In this document: in pieces, positions 13,780 through 26,854 of the stretch | How positions within the stretch are numbered: the first letter of the stretch is position 1 | How the letters are laid out: the number at the start of each line of letters is the position of its first letter | Assembly (NCBI GenBank): GCA_024280935.1 | Contig: JAJRPE010000142.1 | Location: 1-37,279 of the forward strand | DNA from: Candidatus Hydrogenedentota bacterium | GTDB taxonomy: Bacteria > Hydrogenedentota > Hydrogenedentia > Hydrogenedentales > JAEUWI01 | Length of the DNA: 37,279 nt | Direction: 5' to 3' | Made by a program: the position numbers and the translations under genes | Notes under the pieces: generated by a model | Told to the model about the DNA's origin: nothing | Databases searched by the model: none | What the model saw: only the letters and a program-made list of their open reading frames with translations

Positions 13780-14223
13780 CTACGGGATCCTTGTCGACAA
13801 GCCCAGGCAATCCCGCAAGTCATCACGATTTGTGGTCATGTCGGCCAGTGTATATTGATCGAGGACATCCGTGAAGGCCTGAAAGGCCTCGCCAAGAATG
13901 CCCATTAGTTTGCAGGCGGGCGTAATTACGCACTGGTTCTTCTCTCGGTCGAAGCACTCGACAAGATTGAAATTCGGCTCGGTTTTTCGTACCACCTCGC
14001 CAATGTTTATTTGCTCTGGGGGCATGGCCAGGCGCAAGCCTCCCTGGCGGCCCCGGGTGGTGGTTATGTATCCCAGTTTTCCCAGGTTATGAACAACTTT
14101 AACCAAGTGATTTCGGGAAATTTGGTAGTGCTCCGCGATCTCGGTTATGGTCGCATTCTCCGTTGAAATGGCAAGATAAATAAGGGTGCGAAAAGCGTAG
14201 TCGCTGTATTGGGTTAGCTGCAT
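13780..14223 (-). CDS. nsrR: Rrf2-family transcriptional regulator, NsrR-like
   Basis: The 147-aa protein starts MQLTQYSDYAFRTLIYLA and has a winged helix with EHYQISRNHLVKVVHNL as recognition region and TTRGRQGGLRLA as the wing, all as in NsrR, the nitric-oxide-sensing [Fe-S] repressor. Three cysteines at the cluster positions (C90, C98 and C104, the latter two as CVITPAC) support Fe-S binding, although the spacing between the first two is longer (x7) than in E. coli NsrR (x4). It is divergent from the truncated haemoglobin and reductase genes with a 190-nt shared intergenic region, the typical arrangement of a local NO-responsive regulator. Confidence in Rrf2 is very high; in the NO-sensing role, good because of context. 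Confidence 0.9.
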   Translation of the reverse strand: MQLTQYSDYAFRTLIYLAISTENATITEIAEHYQISRNHLVKVVHNLGKLGYITTTRGRQGGLRLAMPPEQINIGEVVRKTEPNFNLVECFDREKNQCVITPACKLMGILGEAFQAFTDVLDQYTLADMTTNRDDLRDCLGLSTRIP

Positions 14224-14273
14224 CTAAGTGGTCCTGCGTCGTCGGGCATCGAATGTCTTTCCAACGCCAATAG

Positions 14274-14302
14274 TTGACTTTTCTGTCAGTATACACTAAG
14301 AT
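14274..14302 (+). promoter_or_regulatory. Sigma-70-type promoter of the truncated haemoglobin gene
   Basis: TTGACT at 14274-14279 and TAAGAT at 14297-14302 are separated by exactly 17 nt and lie about 110 nt before the haemoglobin start. The spacer contains the palindrome GTATAC (14289-14294), so an Rrf2-type operator overlapping the promoter is possible, but no full NsrR consensus could be seen. Confidence 0.6.
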
Positions 14303-14413
14303 CGATTTGGAATCTATGTTTAACGCCCTGTGATTGGGTGTCCCATCAAAGTCGCATGTGCGAATGGAGGTGTGTCTCCATATTTTCGTGCAACCAACAA
14401 AAAGGAATCTATG

Positions 14414-14779
14414 ATGAGTTCTGTATACGAACAAATTGGCGGGGAAGCCGCCGTTGACGCCGCCGTTGATATCTTTTATCGCCACGTTTTGGGCGATAAC
14501 CGTATTTCCCGCTTTTTCGAGGGCGTGGATATGGAGACCCAGGCCCAGAAACAAAAAGCCTTCCTGACGATGGCTTTTGGCGGTCCCCACAACTACACGG
14601 GCAAAGATATGCGCGAAGGCCACGCCCATCTCGTGAAACAGGGCCTGAACGACAGCCACTTTGACGCCGTCGCCGAAAATCTGGCAAAAACGCTCAAGGA
14701 ACTGAACGTGCCGCAGAATCTCATTGACGAGGTGATGACCATCGCGGAAAGCACCCGTGAGGACGTTCTCGGTCGATAG
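14414..14779 (+). CDS. glbN: Group I truncated haemoglobin (trHbN-like)
   Basis: The 121-aa protein is a full-length 2-on-2 globin. YEQIGGEAAVDAAVDIFYRHVL gives helices A/B in two conserved blocks with a B10-position tyrosine (Y22). FFEGVDMETQ is the CD/E region, and YTGKDMREGH carries the proximal F8 histidine (H70), followed by the HFDAVAENL helix. Group I members commonly act as NO dioxygenases, oxidising NO to nitrate with O2. An ATG at 14411 is adjacent, but AAAGGA is 7 nt from 14414, so the second ATG was chosen; the longer reading frame from 14330 adds unconserved residues. The NsrR-like gene upstream and the reductase gene downstream make an NO-detoxification role likely. Confidence 0.92.
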   Translation: MSSVYEQIGGEAAVDAAVDIFYRHVLGDNRISRFFEGVDMETQAQKQKAFLTMAFGGPHNYTGKDMREGHAHLVKQGLNDSHFDAVAENLAKTLKELNVPQNLIDEVMTIAESTREDVLGR

Positions 14780-14810
14780 GCCGATGCTCTAACCACGCAC
14801 GACATCTTTC

Positions 14811-14836
14811 GCTCCCCTCCCAGGGGGGGAGCCTTT
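14811..14836 (+). terminator. Terminator-like hairpin between haemoglobin and reductase genes
   Basis: GCTCCCC at 14811-14817 can pair with GGGGAGC ending at 14832, and TTTT follows at 14833-14836. The T-run is short. It may cause partial termination, lowering reductase expression relative to the globin, rather than separating two transcription units. Confidence 0.45.
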
Positions 14837-14866
14837 TCACTCTCTTGGACACCCGCGAAAGTTCCT

Positions 14867-15841
14867 ATGCCTGCAATTACCTACGAAGATAATTCCTACG
14901 CCCTCGGTGAGGGGGAATCCGTATTGGATTGTCTGGCGCGGGAAGGTCATGATATTCCCAGTTCTTGTCGCAGCGGAGTGTGTCATAGTTGCATGCTGCG
15001 GGCGACCTCGGGTGAATTGCCCCCTGCCGCGCAGAAAGGGCTGAAGGATGCCCACCGCGCCCAAGGCTACTTTCTCTCGTGCTGCTGCCACCCCGAAGGG
15101 GACTTAACGGTGACACGTGCCGATGATGCCACGCAGAAGGTTGCTGCACGGGTGCTTCGCAAAGAGACGTTGAATGATCGGGTGCTTCGGGTCGTATTGG
15201 AAACAGACAAGCCGCTGGAATATTTTCCCGGTCAGTTCGTGAACTTCGCCCGGCCCGGTGGGCTGGTGCGGAGTTTTTCGCTGGCAAGCGTCCCCGCCCT
15301 CGGGAATGAATTAGAATTTCATGTTGCTCTGGTGCTTGGTGGCAGTATGAGCGGATGGTTGCATCATGAGGCGGCTCCGGGAGATCCGTTGGAACTCCTG
15401 GGGCCACTCGGCAACTGTTTTTACGTTTCGGGCAACCCGGAACAGCCCCTGTTCATGTTGGGAACGGGCACCGGGCTGGCACCGCTCTACGGCATTCTTC
15501 GTGATGCCCTGAATCAGGGACATCGGGGTCCAATTCACCTTTTTCACGGTGCTTTGCTTGCGTCCGACCTCTATTTGACGGAATCGCTCCGCGATTTGGA
15601 CGGCAAGCATGAGAACTTCACCTACCATGCCAGCGTTCGCGATGAGCCGGGCGAAGACTGGATGGAGCAGGGGGCCGTGGATACGCTCGCGCTGAAGACC
15701 GCTCCCGATTTGAAGGGGTGGAAGGTCTTCCTTTGTGGCAACCCGGATCTGGTAAAACAGGTGCAGCGCAAGACCTTCATGGCCGGGGCCAACATGAAGG
15801 ATATCCACGCGGATGCCTTTTTGCCTGCGGGCGGCGGCTGA
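14867..15841 (+). CDS. [2Fe-2S] ferredoxin / FAD / NAD(P)H oxidoreductase
   Basis: The 324-aa protein fuses a plant-type ferredoxin to a ferredoxin-NAD reductase module, as in phenol hydroxylase or CDP-6-deoxy-glucose reductase components. Cluster cysteines are C34, C39 and C42 (SSCRSGVCHSC) plus C72 in FLSCCCHP. The FAD-binding block is RSFSLASVP after GQFVNFARP, and the NAD pyrophosphate loop is LGTGTGLAPLYGIL, with FLCGNPDLVK near the C-terminus. It passes electrons from NAD(P)H through FAD and the cluster to an acceptor. Its place 87 nt after the truncated haemoglobin gene suggests that the globin's ferric haem is the acceptor, which would make the pair a split analogue of flavohaemoglobin. 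That pairing is inference; the enzyme class is clear. Confidence 0.92.
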   Translation: MPAITYEDNSYALGEGESVLDCLAREGHDIPSSCRSGVCHSCMLRATSGELPPAAQKGLKDAHRAQGYFLSCCCHPEGDLTVTRADDATQKVAARVLRKETLNDRVLRVVLETDKPLEYFPGQFVNFARPGGLVRSFSLASVPALGNELEFHVALVLGGSMSGWLHHEAAPGDPLELLGPLGNCFYVSGNPEQPLFMLGTGTGLAPLYGILRDALNQGHRGPIHLFHGALLASDLYLTESLRDLDGKHENFTYHASVRDEPGEDWMEQGAVDTLALKTAPDLKGWKVFLCGNPDLVKQVQRKTFMAGANMKDIHADAFLPAGGG

Positions 15842-19425: not shown

Positions 19426-19495
19426 CACAGTGTCATTCACACAGTGTCATTCACACAGTGTCATTCACACAGTGTCATTCACACAGTGTCATTCA
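19426..19495 (+). repeat. Tandem array, five copies of a 14-bp unit
   Basis: CACAGTGTCATTCA is repeated five times without interruption or mismatch. It abuts the domain-V-like hairpin. There are no spacers, so it is not CRISPR. Identical copies indicate recent expansion by slippage. Confidence 0.95.
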
Positions 19496-19993
19496 CACGT
19501 AAGCGTCCGGTGATCATCGACTCTCCGCCAGATCTACGGGAGCTTAAAACTGCACGCCGCACAATGACACACCAATAAAACAGCAACGTCCCCACCCAAT
19601 CTATAGAGGTGATTTGTGGGGAATATCCATCCACGTACACCACGCATTCGGATTCACCAAGTCTCGCCGGAAGGCATTGGGCGGCTGCTCTTGCTGGGGT
19701 TATACCGGTTCCCCCCTTCAGACGCCGTTCCTCCCGCCGGCCCCATTTGGACGTCTCTAGGCGCGTACGCTGGCAAGGACCCGGACCCACAAACACCCTG
19801 CGGGGACTGCATCGCCTACGCCCGCGTCGGCAAGCAGCACAAGCGTCGTCTCCAGCCAGTCCACGCCACCGACGGTATGGCCCGTTCGAACGCGAGGCTG
19901 TCCCCAAGCGCTATCCGCAAGACGGGGCGGCCACGTCTTTGTGACCGCCCCGAGAATTCAGGCCGAAAAATCGAGCTTGTTTACTACGTCGCC
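19496..19993. other. Gap without a supportable gene
   Basis: Several overlapping reading frames of 110-140 codons cross this stretch on both strands, but none has a recognisable domain, a ribosome-binding site or convincing composition (they are Arg/Pro/Ser-rich, as expected of shadow frames). It may be decayed coding or mobile-element sequence. Confidence 0.5.
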
Positions 19994-21614: not shown

Positions 21615-21684
21615 ACAGAATACGCCGTAGGTGCATTGAGAACCGTAAGTGATACAAGAGTGCCAACGGGCCTGTGTTGTCCCA

Positions 21685-21724
21685 CGCCTCCTTCATTGCG
21701 GACAGGAAGGTCCGCACTCCTGCC
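21685..21724 (+). repeat. 40-bp dispersed element, copy 2 (also at 16550)
   Basis: This copy matches 16550-16589 at 33 of 40 positions. The centre pairs as GCGGAC/GTCCGC, one base pair longer than in copy 1. It lies 27 nt upstream of the chosen ATG of the 1700-aa gene. Confidence 0.7.
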
Positions 21725-21751
21725 CAGACGAATAATGAGGATACGCAGTTT

Positions 21752-24700
21752 ATGTCTATGAATACGACAAGAAAGCACAATGAAATGACGGGGGCAGCAA
21801 TCATGGCATTCCTGGCTCTGGTGCCGGGCCTCGTCCTGACGACCTTCGCCGATGCCGCCCCTAATGCCAATCGGCTGACCCATCTTGACGGTTCCGATCC
21901 CTATTACGTCCACCGCAGCTTCCCAAAACTGACCACGCCCATGTGGGTGGGGGAAGAAGGCGTGGAGGCCGTGGTGGTCCTTTCCATTGATGACATGAGC
22001 GATCCGGCCAAGTACGAAGCCCATCTGCGCCCCATATTGGATCGCCTGAAGCAGATCGATGGCCGCGCGCCCGTGACGATATTCGCCAACAAGCCCGACC
22101 CGGCGGACCCCATTCTCCAAGACCTTTTGCAGGAGGGGTGCAGCATTGATGTTCATACCATCGCCCATCCCTGCCCGCTTATGAATCCGAAGGGCTTCGA
22201 CTGGGCCAGTGACACGGTCCACGATTGCACGACGCTCTTAAACCAGATTCCAAACAACCATCCCGTGGCTTTCCGCATGCCCTGTTGCGACTCGCGAAAC
22301 ACTCCGACGCCCCGTTTTTACGACGGTATTTTTGATGAGGTGGCGAAGGATGGCAACTTCATGACCATCGACTCGTCGATTTTCAATATCACCACGCCCA
22401 ACGATCCCGACCTGCCTCGCGAGCTTGTCCTCGACGCCGATGGCCGTGAGCGGTTCCGCAAGTATCTTCCTTTCACCAATTTTGTCAACACGATTGAAGA
22501 CTACCCTTATCCCTACGTTATTAATAATGTCTGCTGGGAATTTCCCGCGTCCGTTCCGAGTGACTGGGAAGCCCAGAATCTCAATGGCGTGAACAACCAG
22601 AAGTCCATTGATGACATGAAAGCGGGCATCGATGTCGCGGTGCGCAAGCAGGGCGTCTATACGTTGGTGTTTCATCCCCATGGTTGGATGGAAAACACCC
22701 AGGTGGTTGAACTCATCGACTATGTTGTCGCCACCTACGGTTCCAAGGTGAAGTTCCTGAACTTCGCCGAGATTCAGGAACGGATGAACACCAACGTTCT
22801 CGGTGGCCAAAGCCTTCGCGATGGGGAGGGCAAGGACAACGGCGTGCGTCTGCTCGACCTCAACCTCGATGGCTATCAGGATGTCATCATTGGCAATGGT
22901 GTGGTGCAACAGACACGGATTTGGAACAACCACAGCCGTACCTGGAGCGAACAATCCCTGCCCTTTCAGATCGTGACCGCAGCGGGCACCGGGAGTGGCG
23001 TACGTTTCGGCGCTCACCTGGATAACCGTTCCGATACCCTGGCCCTGCTCCCCGATGGCGGATCCTATGTCTATAACCGGGAGGGCTGGACCCCTTTGCC
23101 CGATGTGGCGGTGGCTTCAGCCAATCTCAACCTGCCGGACAACGGCACCGACGGCGGATTCCGCTTCCGTGATATCGACGGAGACGGCACCCCGGAATTG
23201 GTCGTTGCCAACGCGACGAAGAATGCCATCTATCGGTGGGATAAAGGATGGAAGGCCCTGAGCATCGCGTTGCCCGACGGGGTACGCCTCGTGGATGGCG
23301 CAGGAAGCGACCTCGGACTCCGCTTTGTCGATCTGGACGAGGATGGGGATTCGGATATCGTGTTCTCCAACGAGAATGGCTCCAGCGTTCATGTTTTCGA
23401 CAGCTTGGAAACTGGTTGGGGGGGAAACACCCTGGCGGCGGGTGAGGCCTTGCCTCCGATTACGGTGGCGGGTGCCAACAACGGCGTGTTTTTTCATTCG
23501 CGCAGCATGTGGTTGGTCAATGAGACTACCGGAGAACTGCCCGATTGGGCCGAACCCCATTCCTTCAACGAACTCCTGGGCCATTCACCGGTCACCGCCA
23601 AGTCGCCCGAGGAAGCCCTGGCCTCCTTGCACTTGCGCCCCGGCTACACGGCGGAACTCGTGGTTTCAGAGCCGCTCGTGATGGATCCCGTTTCCATGGA
23701 ATGGGGAGCCGATGGTGCCCTCTGGGTCATGGAAATGCGGGATTACCCCCGTGGTCTGGATGAAATAGAGAACAAACCCGGAAGCCGGGTGCGTCTGCTT
23801 CGGGATACGGACGGCGATGGCACCTACGATAAATCCACCATCTTCCTCGACGGGCTTGGCTTTGCGAACGGTGTCCACCCCTGGCGAAACGGCGTGCTCG
23901 TTACGGTCGCGCCACACATTTTGTTTGCCGCCGATACCGATGGCGATGATGTGGCCGATGTGCGGGAGATACTGTACGAAGGCTTCGGCGAAGGCAATCA
24001 ACAGCACCGCGTAAACGGACTGCGCTGGGGCCTGGACAACTGGCTTCATGGCGCGAACGGCGACAGCAGCGGGAGCATCCGTGCCCTGAAAAGCGATGAT
24101 GCCATGAACCTTCGCGGTCGAGACCTGCGCATCCAGCCCGATACAGGGCGTATCGATGCCCTGGCAGGCCAGACCCAGCATGGCCGCTCGCGGGACGACT
24201 GGGGCAACTGGTTTGGGTGCAGTAATTCCAACCAGGGCTACCATTACGCCTTGGAGAATATTTACACACGCCGAAACCCCCATATCCCTATTCCCGACGC
24301 CCGCGTGACGCTCCTGCGTGACCGTAGCACCTATCCCGTGAGCCGCCTCACGTCCCGTTTCAACGATTTTGACCAGGCCAATAAATTCACCTCGGTCTGC
24401 GGCTTGGAAGTCTATCGGGGCTCTCTTTTTGGCGCGCCTTTCCAACGCAATATATTCTTCTGCGAACCCGTGCATAACACGGTGTCCCGGGCACAGGTGA
24501 TTGCGGACGGCACCACCTTCACCGGCAACCGGGCACCTGGCGAGGAGGCGAGCGAATTCTTCTCCTCCACCGACAACTGGTTCCGTCCGGTCATGGTTCG
24601 CAATGGTCCCGATGGGGCGCTTTGGGTCGCCGATATGTATCGCGAGACCATTGAGCACCCGGAATACATCTCTGAAATGGATCAGGCGCGCACCGACTTT

Positions 24701-26854
24701 ACCTTGGGCAACGACATGGGCCGGATTTACCGAATCTTTCCCGTGGGCTCCAAACCGACCCCCTTCCGCCGTCTCGACACGCTCAGCGCCCCGGAACTGG
24801 CAACGGCCCTGGGCGATCCCAATCCGTGGGTGCGCGACACGGCCCAGCGTCTCCTTTTTGAGCGGCAGGACACGGCGGCCCTGCCTGTCTTGAAATCCCT
24901 CGCGACCGAGAGCGACAATCCCCTGGCCCGCCTCCACGCCCTCCACACCCTGGAAGGCATGAAGGCCCTCCGCCCGGAATTGCTTCTTCCCAGTCTACAA
25001 GCCGATACGCTCCCCAGCCTGAAACGTCATGCCATCCGCCTCTCCGAGCCCTTCCTTAACGAGTCGGATGCCCTCGCTGAGCGCGTTCTGGCTGCTGCAA
25101 AGGATGAGGATGCACAGGTCCGCCAGCAGGTAGCCTATAGCCTGGGTGAACTGGATGGCCCCCGTGCTGCGAAGGTACTGGGCAACCTGCTTGAAGGAGA
25201 TGGCACGGACCTCTACCTGGCGACGGCCGTCTTGAGTTCCCTTCAGGGCGATGACTTGCCGTTCATTGTGGATAACCTTGTTGCCTACAGCCTGAATCCA
25301 GCTATCAGCAACGATCAAGCCAAGCGGGTTGTGTCTATGACCACCAGGATGGCCGAGTTGTATAAGCACACCGATCTCCTGGGAGCCTTCGCTACCGCCG
25401 TGACGAAAATTCAGAACAACACACCCGCGACACGAAATTTTGTTGCCGTGCGGGCGCTCATTCGCACGGCCCGGCAGGACAGCACGCGGGAGGCCTTCTT
25501 TGGCGGGTCGGGCATTCTGGCGCCACTCACTGCGGCGGCGCGGACGATTGCCGAAGATAGCGAGCAGCCGGATGCCCTCCGTCTGGATGCCCTCGAACTC
25601 CTGGGGCGTGAATCTGCCCATCGGGAGGGTGACCGTGAGATTTTGAAGAACCTCGTCGATCCCCGTGAATCCCTGGCGGTGGCCGAGGCTACTATTCAAG
25701 CACTGGCCCGCATGGGCGGCAACGAGGCGCTGGAGCCGCTGCTGGCAAACTGGAAGACCTACACACGGGAACTTCGCGGGAAGATTCTCGATGTCTTATT
25801 GGGCCTGGATGGCGGGGTGCAACTGGTGGTGGCCCACCTGGAATCGGGCGCGATGACCGTGCGCCAACTGAACGCCAGCCAGCGGCAGCGCCTGCTGACC
25901 CACCCCGACGCCACGATCCAGAAACGTGTAGAGTCCCTTATGGCGGGCGTGGTGGACAACGACCGTGTCGCGGTGGTGGCCCGCTTTCGTGCCGCCGCCG
26001 ATCTGGCAGGGGATCTGGAGCAGGGACGCCCCATCTATGAGGAGCTGTGCTCCAAATGTCATAAAATAGGGGACATGGGCTTCGTCGTGGGACCCGACCT
26101 CGCGGCAGCGGGCAGTGGCTCCTTTGAGACGCTCATTACGTCCATTCTTGACCCAAATCGCTCCATGACCGATCGCTACACGAATTACACGGTGGAAACG
26201 ACCAACCTGGAGTCCTTCGCCGGGGTGTTGGCCAACGAAAGCGCCAACGACATTACCCTCATCAATGCGGGCGGGGTGGAGAATACCGTGCTCCGTACCG
26301 AGATTGAATCCATGACGGAAGAGGATATGTCCATCATGCCCTTGGGCCTCGAAGAAGGACTCAGCGAACAAGACATGGCCAACCTGATTGCTTTCATCCG
26401 GGGTAAAGCCCCGGAGCCAAAGTCCTTCCCGGAGAACACCCCGGCCCTGGTCGCGGTCGATAGCAACGGCGTTCTTCAGCTCACCGCAGAGAATGCGGAG
26501 ATCTACGGCGACACCCTTGTCTACGAAAGTGATTACCACAATCTCGGCCAATGGTACAGCGCCAATGATCACGCCGTCTGGAACATAGAGACGGATACCG
26601 GCGGCACCTTTGATGTCGTCATGGAGTACTGCTGCGACAAGACCTCCACCGGCAATGCCTTCCGCATGGAAGTGGGGAAGAATCTCCTCACGGGAAAAGG
26701 CACCAGTACCGGCAGTTGGGACCGCTACTTCACCAAGAAAATTGGTCGTGTCCACCTGGCCCCCGGCGAGCAGCGTGTTGTATTCCGCCCCGACGGCCCG
26801 CTCAAAGAACGCCTTATTGAGCTTCGGGGCCTGCGCCTGGAGCCGGTGAAATGA
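21752..26854 (+). CDS. Giant exported protein: polysaccharide-deacetylase-like, FG-GAP-like, PVC-type dehydrogenase, HEAT-like and cytochrome c domains
   Basis: The 1700-aa protein starts at 21752; the open frame reaches back to 21674, but that part is a dispersed repeat. A signal-like segment (about 14-36, TTFADAA) is followed by a NodB-like domain (about 70-345) with VVVLSIDD (D80-D81), HTIAHP (H135, H139), FRMPCC and FHPHG (about 308). FG-GAP/VCBS-like repeats cover about 355-620 (LDLNLDGYQDVIIGNG, DIDGDGTPELVVAN, DLDEDGDSDIVFSN). A PVC-type dehydrogenase propeller follows (about 640-1010; GADGALWVMEMRDYPRG, RDTDGDGTYD, RNGPDGALWVADMYRE), then HEAT-like repeats (about 1015-1420) and a haem c domain with CSKCH (C1433, C1436, H1437) and a likely axial Met in SIMPLG. 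The last 130 residues are a beta-rich CBM-like domain. It is probably periplasmic, joining carbohydrate binding or deacetylation to electron transfer. Confidence 0.92.
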   Translation: MSMNTTRKHNEMTGAAIMAFLALVPGLVLTTFADAAPNANRLTHLDGSDPYYVHRSFPKLTTPMWVGEEGVEAVVVLSIDDMSDPAKYEAHLRPILDRLKQIDGRAPVTIFANKPDPADPILQDLLQEGCSIDVHTIAHPCPLMNPKGFDWASDTVHDCTTLLNQIPNNHPVAFRMPCCDSRNTPTPRFYDGIFDEVAKDGNFMTIDSSIFNITTPNDPDLPRELVLDADGRERFRKYLPFTNFVNTIEDYPYPYVINNVCWEFPASVPSDWEAQNLNGVNNQKSIDDMKAGIDVAVRKQGVYTLVFHPHGWMENTQVVELIDYVVATYGSKVKFLNFAEIQERMNTNVLGGQSLRDGEGKDNGVRLLDLNLDGYQDVIIGNGVVQQTRIWNNHSRTWSEQSLPFQIVTAAGTGSGVRFGAHLDNRSDTLALLPDGGSYVYNREGWTPLPDVAVASANLNLPDNGTDGGFRFRDIDGDGTPELVVANATKNAIYRWDKGWKALSIALPDGVRLVDGAGSDLGLRFVDLDEDGDSDIVFSNENGSSVHVFDSLETGWGGNTLAAGEALPPITVAGANNGVFFHSRSMWLVNETTGELPDWAEPHSFNELLGHSPVTAKSPEEALASLHLRPGYTAELVVSEPLVMDPVSMEWGADGALWVMEMRDYPRGLDEIENKPGSRVRLLRDTDGDGTYDKSTIFLDGLGFANGVHPWRNGVLVTVAPHILFAADTDGDDVADVREILYEGFGEGNQQHRVNGLRWGLDNWLHGANGDSSGSIRALKSDDAMNLRGRDLRIQPDTGRIDALAGQTQHGRSRDDWGNWFGCSNSNQGYHYALENIYTRRNPHIPIPDARVTLLRDRSTYPVSRLTSRFNDFDQANKFTSVCGLEVYRGSLFGAPFQRNIFFCEPVHNTVSRAQVIADGTTFTGNRAPGEEASEFFSSTDNWFRPVMVRNGPDGALWVADMYRETIEHPEYISEMDQARTDFTLGNDMGRIYRIFPVGSKPTPFRRLDTLSAPELATALGDPNPWVRDTAQRLLFERQDTAALPVLKSLATESDNPLARLHALHTLEGMKALRPELLLPSLQADTLPSLKRHAIRLSEPFLNESDALAERVLAAAKDEDAQVRQQVAYSLGELDGPRAAKVLGNLLEGDGTDLYLATAVLSSLQGDDLPFIVDNLVAYSLNPAISNDQAKRVVSMTTRMAELYKHTDLLGAFATAVTKIQNNTPATRNFVAVRALIRTARQDSTREAFFGGSGILAPLTAAARTIAEDSEQPDALRLDALELLGRESAHREGDREILKNLVDPRESLAVAEATIQALARMGGNEALEPLLANWKTYTRELRGKILDVLLGLDGGVQLVVAHLESGAMTVRQLNASQRQRLLTHPDATIQKRVESLMAGVVDNDRVAVVARFRAAADLAGDLEQGRPIYEELCSKCHKIGDMGFVVGPDLAAAGSGSFETLITSILDPNRSMTDRYTNYTVETTNLESFAGVLANESANDITLINAGGVENTVLRTEIESMTEEDMSIMPLGLEEGLSEQDMANLIAFIRGKAPEPKSFPENTPALVAVDSNGVLQLTAENAEIYGDTLVYESDYHNLGQWYSANDHAVWNIETDTGGTFDVVMEYCCDKTSTGNAFRMEVGKNLLTGKGTSTGSWDRYFTKKIGRVHLAPGEQRVVFRPDGPLKERLIELRGLRLEPVK

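What the first reader, a model, noticed from the sequence alone, without database searches (positions are those of the whole stretch)
13780..15841. Split flavohaemoglobin-like NO-detoxification module under an NsrR-like repressor
Seen: an Rrf2 gene with NsrR-like sequence and three cluster cysteines is divergent from a group I truncated haemoglobin, followed by a [2Fe-2S]/FAD/NAD reductase. The TTGACT-17-TAAGAT promoter lies between the divergent genes. Known: flavohaemoglobin (Hmp) joins globin and FAD/NAD domains in one chain and is repressed by NsrR; group I truncated globins can be NO dioxygenases but their reductase is often unknown. Inference: here the reductase is supplied by an adjacent gene with an extra ferredoxin domain, giving a dedicated electron-transfer partner. 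The terminator-like hairpin between the two genes could set a globin excess.
Basis: partly seen in the sequence, partly recalled or inferred. Interest (0 to 1): 0.75.

Follow-up and report, generated by a model that had tools for sequence, protein, structure and literature searches.

The report
Two-gene nitric oxide detoxification module, NsrR-controlled
A small haemoglobin and a separate enzyme that very probably feeds it electrons sit side by side under a nitric-oxide-sensing switch, a pairing kept in many unrelated bacteria and first predicted in 2005, which offers a concrete electron donor to test for this haemoglobin class.

Summary
In detail: an Rrf2 repressor gene (13780-14223, -) diverges from a group 1 truncated haemoglobin (14411-14779) and a [2Fe-2S]/FAD/NAD reductase (14867-15841). 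The linkage is conserved: of 91 distinct loci with a close globin, 82 have the reductase beside it and 54 a linked Rrf2; none of 12 distant globin paralogues has the reductase in the flank held. The repressor is NsrR-type: its recalled cluster ligands (D8, three Cys) never vary. Unsupervised motif finding on 38 divergent promoters returns the NsrR palindrome. The window's degenerate copy (14298-14320) overlaps the -10 box and ranks first of 37,257 window positions under a model trained without this genus. Such sites also precede hcp in this genome and both congeners that have hcp. Flavohaemoglobin reaches its cut-off in 0 of 60 genomes searched. Best reading: an NsrR-repressed, two-protein NO dioxygenase in place of Hmp. 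The idea is not new: Rodionov 2005 predicted such a pair under NsrR in Legionella. Added here: breadth, operator, other regulators beside some copies (SufR-like, H-NOX, sigma factor) and an invariant lysine at haem position E10. The hairpin idea is not supported by conservation. No biochemistry was tested.

The parts
13780..14223 (-). NsrR-type Rrf2 repressor gene, 147 aa, with D8, C90, C98, C104
   Evidence: Pfam Rrf2 131 bits; best NCBIfam model NsrR PRK11014, 144 bits, below its cut-off of 182; best solved structure NsrR 5n07, E=2e-15; D8 in 54 of 54 and the three Cys in 55/55, 54/54, 54/54 sequences with a residue there
14274..14302 (+). sigma-70-like promoter TTGACT-17-TAAGAT for globin-reductase
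   Evidence: not above chance alone; same layout aligned in the three congeners
14298..14320 (.). NsrR-type operator AAGATCGATTTGGAATCTATGTT overlapping the -10 box; a degenerate copy
   Evidence: de novo palindromic motif from 38 divergent intergenic regions; rank 1 of 37,257 window positions with a model trained without this genus, 0.0006 of 5,000 shuffles reach it. Not picked out by the published consensus alone
14411..14779 (+). group 1 truncated haemoglobin (trHbN, GlbN-like), 122 aa, pocket Y23 (B10), Q44 (E7), K47 (E10), Q48 (E11), H71 (F8); position names recalled
   Evidence: PF01152; best solved match cyanobacterial GlbN 2ksc, E=1e-35; the five residues 113 of 113
14811..14832 (+). 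terminator-like hairpin between globin and reductase (not conserved)
   Evidence: gaps of 15, 53 and 146 nt without this hairpin in the three congeners
14867..15841 (+). reductase: N-terminal plant-type [2Fe-2S] ferredoxin, FAD and NAD(P) domains, 324 aa
   Evidence: Fer2, FAD_binding_6, NAD_binding_1; C34, C39, C42 in 83 of 83 and C72 in 82 of 82; R135 82 of 82; C290-G291 80 of 80; best solved match P450 reductase 5ogx, E=8e-39

Best explanation
A three-gene NO-defence module. The Rrf2 protein is an NsrR-type repressor that binds a palindrome over the -10 region of the globin promoter and lets go when NO attacks its Fe-S cluster. The globin and reductase are then made together. Ferrous-oxy globin turns NO into nitrate, and the ferric globin is re-reduced by NAD(P)H through FAD and [2Fe-2S] of the neighbouring reductase: the job of flavohaemoglobin Hmp, done by two proteins. 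Shown here: genes, linkage, operator, conserved cofactor residues, NsrR-type sites at other nitrogen-oxide genes. Inferred: Fe-S loading, NO response, reductase-to-globin electron transfer, NO dioxygenase chemistry.
For: Globin plus same-strand reductase in 82 of 91 distinct loci (3 of the 9 misses end at a contig edge) and Rrf2 linked in 54 of 91, in two main arrangements (40 divergent, 13 co-directional downstream, 1 other); 0 of 12 distant globin paralogues has the reductase in the flank held. All three genes together in 15 of 17 close-globin loci of the window's own order, the window included. Unsupervised motif = NsrR consensus, log-likelihood 287 against 35-44 in 5 shuffled sets; held-out sites of 11.9 bits or more in 33 of 38 intergenic regions against 17 of 4,758 background stretches. 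NsrR-type sites precede hcp in this genome and in both congeners that have hcp; the third congener has no hcp match but has such sites before a group III-like truncated globin and before napD and a molybdopterin oxidoreductase. Hmp model over its cut-off in 0 of 60 genomes. In some loci without Rrf2 the divergent gene is another NO- or Fe-S-type sensor: H-NOX, SufR-like. Published precedent for the same kind of pair under NsrR (PMC1274295).
Against: No activity measured. NCBIfam's NsrR equivalog cut-off is not reached (144 of 182 bits). The window's operator is degenerate (11.9 bits; the best held-out loci reach 25-26), and against the published consensus alone the window's promoter does not stand out (best match 4 mismatches at another offset, equalled by 52% of 50 shuffles). 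Six loci with room for it lack the reductase (L011, L053, L066, L076, L082, L091), one of them keeping Rrf2 (L076). 37 of 91 lack a linked Rrf2, and only 11 of those 37 have an NsrR-like site of 11.9 bits or more. The genome has four other Rrf2 proteins over the Pfam cut-off, so the sites cannot be tied to this one by sequence alone. Similar reductases serve oxygenases and P450s.
Confidence: 0.78

Rival explanations
1. The pair mainly handles another nitrogen species (nitrite or hydroxylamine reduction, or anaerobic NO reduction to N2O), with the reductase keeping the haem ferrous; NsrR control would look the same.
For: Chlamydomonas THB1 and THB11, which have LysE10, reduce nitrite in vitro (passages of PMC7082302); NsrR-type sites also precede hcp and, in one congener, napD with a molybdopterin oxidoreductase, genes of low-oxygen nitrogen-oxide metabolism.
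Against: B10 Tyr with polar E7/E11 is a ligand-stabilising set in group 1 truncated globins (passages of PMC7082302), which suits oxy-haem chemistry (inference); Hcp, present in 3 of the 4 genomes of the genus, already offers an anaerobic route (recalled function).
Confidence: 0.15
2. The reductase serves another protein (for example an oxygenase or Hcp), and the globin is a passive NO or O2 scavenger kept in the same operon only by co-regulation.
For: The best solved matches of the reductase are P450, benzoate and toluene oxygenase reductases; six globin loci with room for it lack the reductase.
Against: The globin is the constant partner while regulators and gene order change; in 82 of 82 loci the reductase frame begins within 376 nt of the globin end, leaving little room for another gene; on two Methylocystis plasmid records the pair is adjacent with no Rrf2 or hcp annotated within about 3 kb, in an incomplete gene table. 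Genes further away were not surveyed for oxygenases.
Confidence: 0.07

Closest known systems
Legionella pneumophila glbN-lpg2536 under NsrR (Rodionov et al. 2005, PMC1274295; repeated in Gardner 2012, PMC3820574; passages read)
   Same: Cyanoglobin-type trHbN plus ferredoxin reductase as an NsrR target in a genome without hmp; proposed NO oxidation like Hmp.
   Different: Different phylum; here an NsrR-type gene is divergently linked and hcp also has such a site, whereas in Legionella the pair was the sole predicted target. Sequences were not compared here.
Flavohaemoglobin Hmp
   Same: Globin plus FAD/NAD reductase, NsrR control.
   Different: Two chains, 2/2 (truncated) instead of 3/3 globin, and an extra [2Fe-2S] ferredoxin domain.
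Bradyrhizobium Bjgb-Flp (PMC4724949, passages read)
   Same: Separate globin and flavoprotein genes in one operon; mutants of either are sensitive to nitrosative stress.
   Different: Single-domain globin related to the Hmp haem domain, NasST control, Flp also proposed as donor to nitrate reductase; the flp mutant's NO consumption was only marginally lower than wild type.
Chlamydomonas THB1/THB2/THB4 (PMC7082302, passages read)
   Same: Group 1 truncated globins with LysE10.
   Different: LysE10 ligation is measured there; here only the residue is known. In the THB11 structure LysE10 points away from the haem.

Membership tests
NsrR (Rrf2 family) | Rrf2 winged-helix domain | tested here: met
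   PF02082, 131 bits
NsrR (Rrf2 family) | [4Fe-4S] ligands: three Cys plus Asp8 (ligand roles recalled from the Streptomyces NsrR structure) | tested here: met
   D8, C90, C98, C104 present and invariant where a residue is aligned (54/54, 55/55, 54/54, 54/54). Cluster binding itself not tested
NsrR (Rrf2 family) | NCBIfam NsrR equivalog score above its curated cut-off | tested here: not met
   144 bits against 182; so called NsrR-type, not an equivalog of the E. coli protein
NsrR (Rrf2 family) | Operator of type gATGyAT-N5-ATrCATc at its targets | tested here: met
   De novo motif AAgATgTATttnaaATAcATcTT for the family; the window copy is degenerate, top-ranked with the family model but not with the published consensus
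NsrR (Rrf2 family) | NO-responsive derepression | not testable with these tools
   Needs purified protein or a reporter
Group 1 truncated haemoglobin (trHbN) | Bac_globin domain, HisF8, TyrB10, closest to GlbN structures | tested here: met
Flavohaemoglobin Hmp | Globin and FAD/NAD domains in one chain, above the Hmp model cut-off | tested here: not met
   Separate genes; the reductase matches only the reductase half of the Hmp model, 71 of 432 bits
NO dioxygenase | O2- and NAD(P)H-dependent NO turnover with a defined electron donor | not testable with these tools
   Inferred from linkage and regulation only

The most novel reading that the evidence does not exclude
The GlbN-reductase pair is a widespread, mobile two-protein counterpart of flavohaemoglobin. 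Its globins form one clade with an invariant Tyr-Gln-Lys-Gln distal pocket (K47 at E10 in 113 of 113 sequences), in which LysE10 ligates the resting ferric haem and gates one-electron reduction by the dedicated [2Fe-2S] reductase. The pair is placed under whichever NO or Fe-S sensor the host has: NsrR, a SufR-like regulator, H-NOX or a sigma factor.
Probability: 0.3. Interest if true: 0.65.

Novelty: new member of a known kind. Interest (0 to 1): 0.45.

Why it matters
[quoted passage not shown] A reductase kept beside the same globin group in 82 of 91 loci is a concrete donor to test. It suggests that bacteria without Hmp, including this lineage, may use a two-protein counterpart, and gives a residue-level prediction (LysE10) for how electron entry is controlled.

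Tried and rejected
Hairpin as a conserved regulator of the globin:reductase ratio: rejected. In 60 measured gaps (the window plus 59 of the 82 loci with a reductase, starts chosen by a simple rule) the distance is -1 to 212 nt and 32 of 60 are 29 nt or less; of the three congeners L004 has a 15-nt gap, L006 a weakly folding 53-nt gap, and L002 a 146-nt GC-rich gap with a different, stronger fold.

A globin-reductase fusion: none seen in the loci searched. Hmp as a competing system: matches in 58 of 60 genomes, none over the cut-off and none spanning both halves; all but two of the listed matches (G023:C512 and G032:C585) lie in the reductase half. Rfam: no match in the window. Globin and reductase distances correlate only moderately (r 0.52, 64 sequences); not used as evidence.

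Published NsrR consensus alone (in which some gene starts were mis-set): the window's promoter does not stand out (4 mismatches, equalled by 52% of 50 shuffles); other loci do, two with no mismatch (L010, L047).

Regulon scan: the two IUPAC patterns were not exhaustive (they missed the hcp site of the own genome, found by reading upstream of hcp). The pattern was composed from the four globin-promoter sites, so its matches there are by construction. Controls (pattern read backwards) gave 0 except 1+1 in G003 and 1+1 in G042. Sites of unclear meaning: an alginate-export-type porin in two genomes, moaA, a cytochrome c7-like gene, an EF-G/Memo pair, an AAA/DUF4143 gene, and sites in L134, L141-L143, L164, L166, L168 and L169 with no clear target. 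In the 37 loci without Rrf2 only 19 selected neighbour proteins were scanned with Pfam; most were housekeeping or unrelated genes.

Rows dropped: of 40 divergent loci, L038, L068 and L103 left the motif set (no usable start or length), leaving 37 plus the window. One search dropped L001 (own) and five loci that duplicate named records (L005, L007, L008, L009, L013). L024 was too long to align, and its frame runs to the end of the sequence held. Shuffled motif searches used 25 starts against 60 for the real set.

Full report
What is there. The window is contig C255 of a 6.76 Mb, 661-contig genome. A same-family genome (G006) carries the globin on a contig of the same length (15,032) and match position as a record titled Candidatus Hydrogenedentota (L008 and L038), so the lineage is probably Hydrogenedentota. 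An Rrf2 gene (13780-14223, minus) diverges from a 122-aa group 1 truncated haemoglobin (14411-14779) followed by a 324-aa Fer2/FAD/NAD reductase (14867-15841). The globin is closest among solved structures to cyanobacterial GlbN (2ksc, E=1e-35), the reductase to P450 and oxygenase reductases (5ogx, E=8e-39), and the regulator to NsrR (5n07, E=2e-15; NCBIfam NsrR 144 bits, below the 182-bit cut-off).

Linkage. I took globin relatives chosen by globin similarity alone: 28 loci from the 59 related genomes searched and the best 80 of 120 confirmed loci from the species-level genome collection. After removing the window's own locus and five duplicates, 103 loci remained, 91 with a close globin (140 bits or more). 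The reductase follows on the same strand in 82 of 91, each time with its open frame beginning within 376 nt of the globin end; three of the nine misses (L075, L080, L087) end within 551 bases of the globin at a contig edge. Rrf2 is divergent upstream in 40, co-directional downstream in 13, otherwise placed in 1 and not found in 37; six of these 37 have little flank on one side. None of the 12 distant globin paralogues has the reductase in the flank held (up to 1.5 kb; shorter in L021, L024 and L026), though two have a weak Rrf2-type match downstream. Within the window's own order, 15 of 17 close-globin loci, the window included, carry all three genes. By record title the loci span Hydrogenedentota, Acidobacteria, Gammaproteobacteria, Zetaproteobacteria, Myxococcus and others; MAG titles are not proof of taxonomy.

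Residues. In 113 aligned globins (window included; tandem copies counted; the triple chain L066 counted once; near relatives not thinned) Y23, Q44, K47, Q48 and H71 never vary. In the alignment to GlbN K47 stands opposite its histidine; that this is the distal ligand position E10 is recalled and agrees with PMC11904497 (passages). None of the 11 distant paralogues that were aligned has the full Tyr-Gln-Lys-Gln set; as the close set was chosen by similarity, this contrast is partly built in. In the repressor D8 and three Cys are invariant; that these are the NsrR ligands is recalled. In the reductase the four [2Fe-2S] Cys, R135 and C290-G291 are invariant.

Operator. This matches the NsrR motif published by Rodionov 2005 (gATGyAT-N5-ATrCATc; passage). 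With a model trained without the window and its three congeners, the window site 14298-14320 scores 11.9 bits and ranks first of 37,257 positions (next 5.7); 0.0006 of 5,000 mononucleotide shuffles of the intergenic region reach it. Against the bare published consensus the window does not stand out, so the assignment rests on the family model and on the congeners. In fivefold cross-validation 33 of 38 regions score at least 11.9 bits, against 17 of 4,758 background stretches of 300 nt scored with the model; relatives in different folds are not independent. The site overlaps the -10 box, and -35, 17-nt spacing, -10 and operator align in the window and its three congeners, a layout that fits repression. 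Within 300 nt upstream of the globin, 7 of 13 loci with downstream Rrf2 and 11 of 37 without linked Rrf2 also have a site of at least 11.9 bits; the 6 SufR-like loci, part of the 37, have none.

Regulon. NsrR-type sites lie upstream of hcp in the own genome (21.7 bits), G001 (20.7) and G002 (19.0). G003 has no hcp match but has a 26.4-bit site upstream of a globin-like gene whose best solved match is a group III truncated haemoglobin (2ig3, E=1e-7; no Pfam match), and a 23.9-bit site upstream of napD and a molybdopterin oxidoreductase, probably napA. G002 has one beside moaA. Sites without an obvious nitrogen-oxide link were found too (Tried and rejected). The flavohaemoglobin model reaches its cut-off in 0 of 60 genomes, this one and 59 relatives, many of them incomplete, and no match spans globin and reductase halves; Hmp therefore seems absent, as described for Legionella.

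Regulator exchange. In six loci without Rrf2 (four titled as methanotrophs, two of these from one MAG) the divergent gene belongs to one family that is SufR-like (72-82 bits in the four scanned, cut-off 178.8) with conserved Cys; one of the six (L053) lacks the reductase. In L081 the divergent gene is H-NOX (PF07700, E=6e-33). On two Methylocystis plasmid records an annotated RNA polymerase sigma factor lies next to or near the pair. The globin-reductase pair is thus the constant core. H-NOX was found in that one locus only, and most of the 37 Rrf2-less loci have no identified sensor.

Mechanism and prior work. The simplest reading is a two-protein Hmp: NsrR holds the promoter until NO damages its cluster; the reductase then passes electrons from NAD(P)H through FAD and [2Fe-2S] to ferric globin, which oxidises NO with O2. 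Rodionov 2005 proposed this for Legionella glbN-lpg2536 and Gardner 2012 repeated it (passages). Four searches of the held library pairing NsrR with truncated hemoglobin, truncated globin, glbN or truncated haemoglobin listed nine different papers. In the passages I read of all nine only these two describe the pair; a 2024 study reports nsrR and glbN in Shark Bay MAGs of Hydrogenedentota and Sumerlaeota, its passages saying nothing of linkage. Most subscription papers are not in the library. Bradyrhizobium Bjgb-Flp is an experimental precedent for a split globin-flavoprotein system (passages). LysE10 ligates haem in Chlamydomonas THB1, THB2 and THB4 but not in ferrous THB11, so the invariant lysine is a prediction, not a finding (passages).

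Verdict. Real, well conserved and best explained as an NsrR-controlled NO-detoxification pair; a well-supported new member of a kind predicted twenty years ago, with a testable electron donor as its main value.

Noticed in passing
L057, L059-L062, L064, L065, L067, L069, L070, L072, L074, L079, L087, L088, L091, L093, L094, L096, L097, L106: 21 of 91 close loci have two adjacent globin genes; 20 of the 21 record titles are Zetaproteobacteria or Mariprofundus-type bacteria.
   Followed up: partly
L066:5950-7152: A 401-aa chain of three trHbN domains, each with the M..Q..KQ pocket motif, in a Chromatiaceae MAG, without the adjacent reductase.
   Followed up: partly
L081:5098-5649: An H-NOX gene diverges from the globin-reductase pair in a Thiodiazotropha MAG; not found in L090 from a similarly named MAG.
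   Followed up: partly
L172 and L173 (Methylocystis plasmids): The globin-reductase pair sits on plasmids next to or near an RNA polymerase sigma factor gene.
   Followed up: partly
L136:2513-2535: A near-perfect NsrR-type palindrome (26.4 bits) 17 nt before a group III-like truncated globin gene in a congener without an hcp match.
   Followed up: partly
L135:1564-1586 and L138:2561-2583: NsrR-type sites before an alginate-export-type porin gene in the own genome and one congener; relation to NO unknown.
   Followed up: partly
window 19426-19498: A perfect 14-bp tandem repeat, 5.2 copies.
   Followed up: no
window 21674-26854: A 1726-aa ORF with DUF7133, HEAT repeats, FG-GAP-type repeats and a weak cytochrome c match.
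   Followed up: no
L140:512-1810 (G000:C241): A 433-aa FAD/NAD/Fer2 oxidoreductase that is the genome's best match to the reductase half of the Hmp model (214 bits), with no globin domain found.
   Followed up: partly
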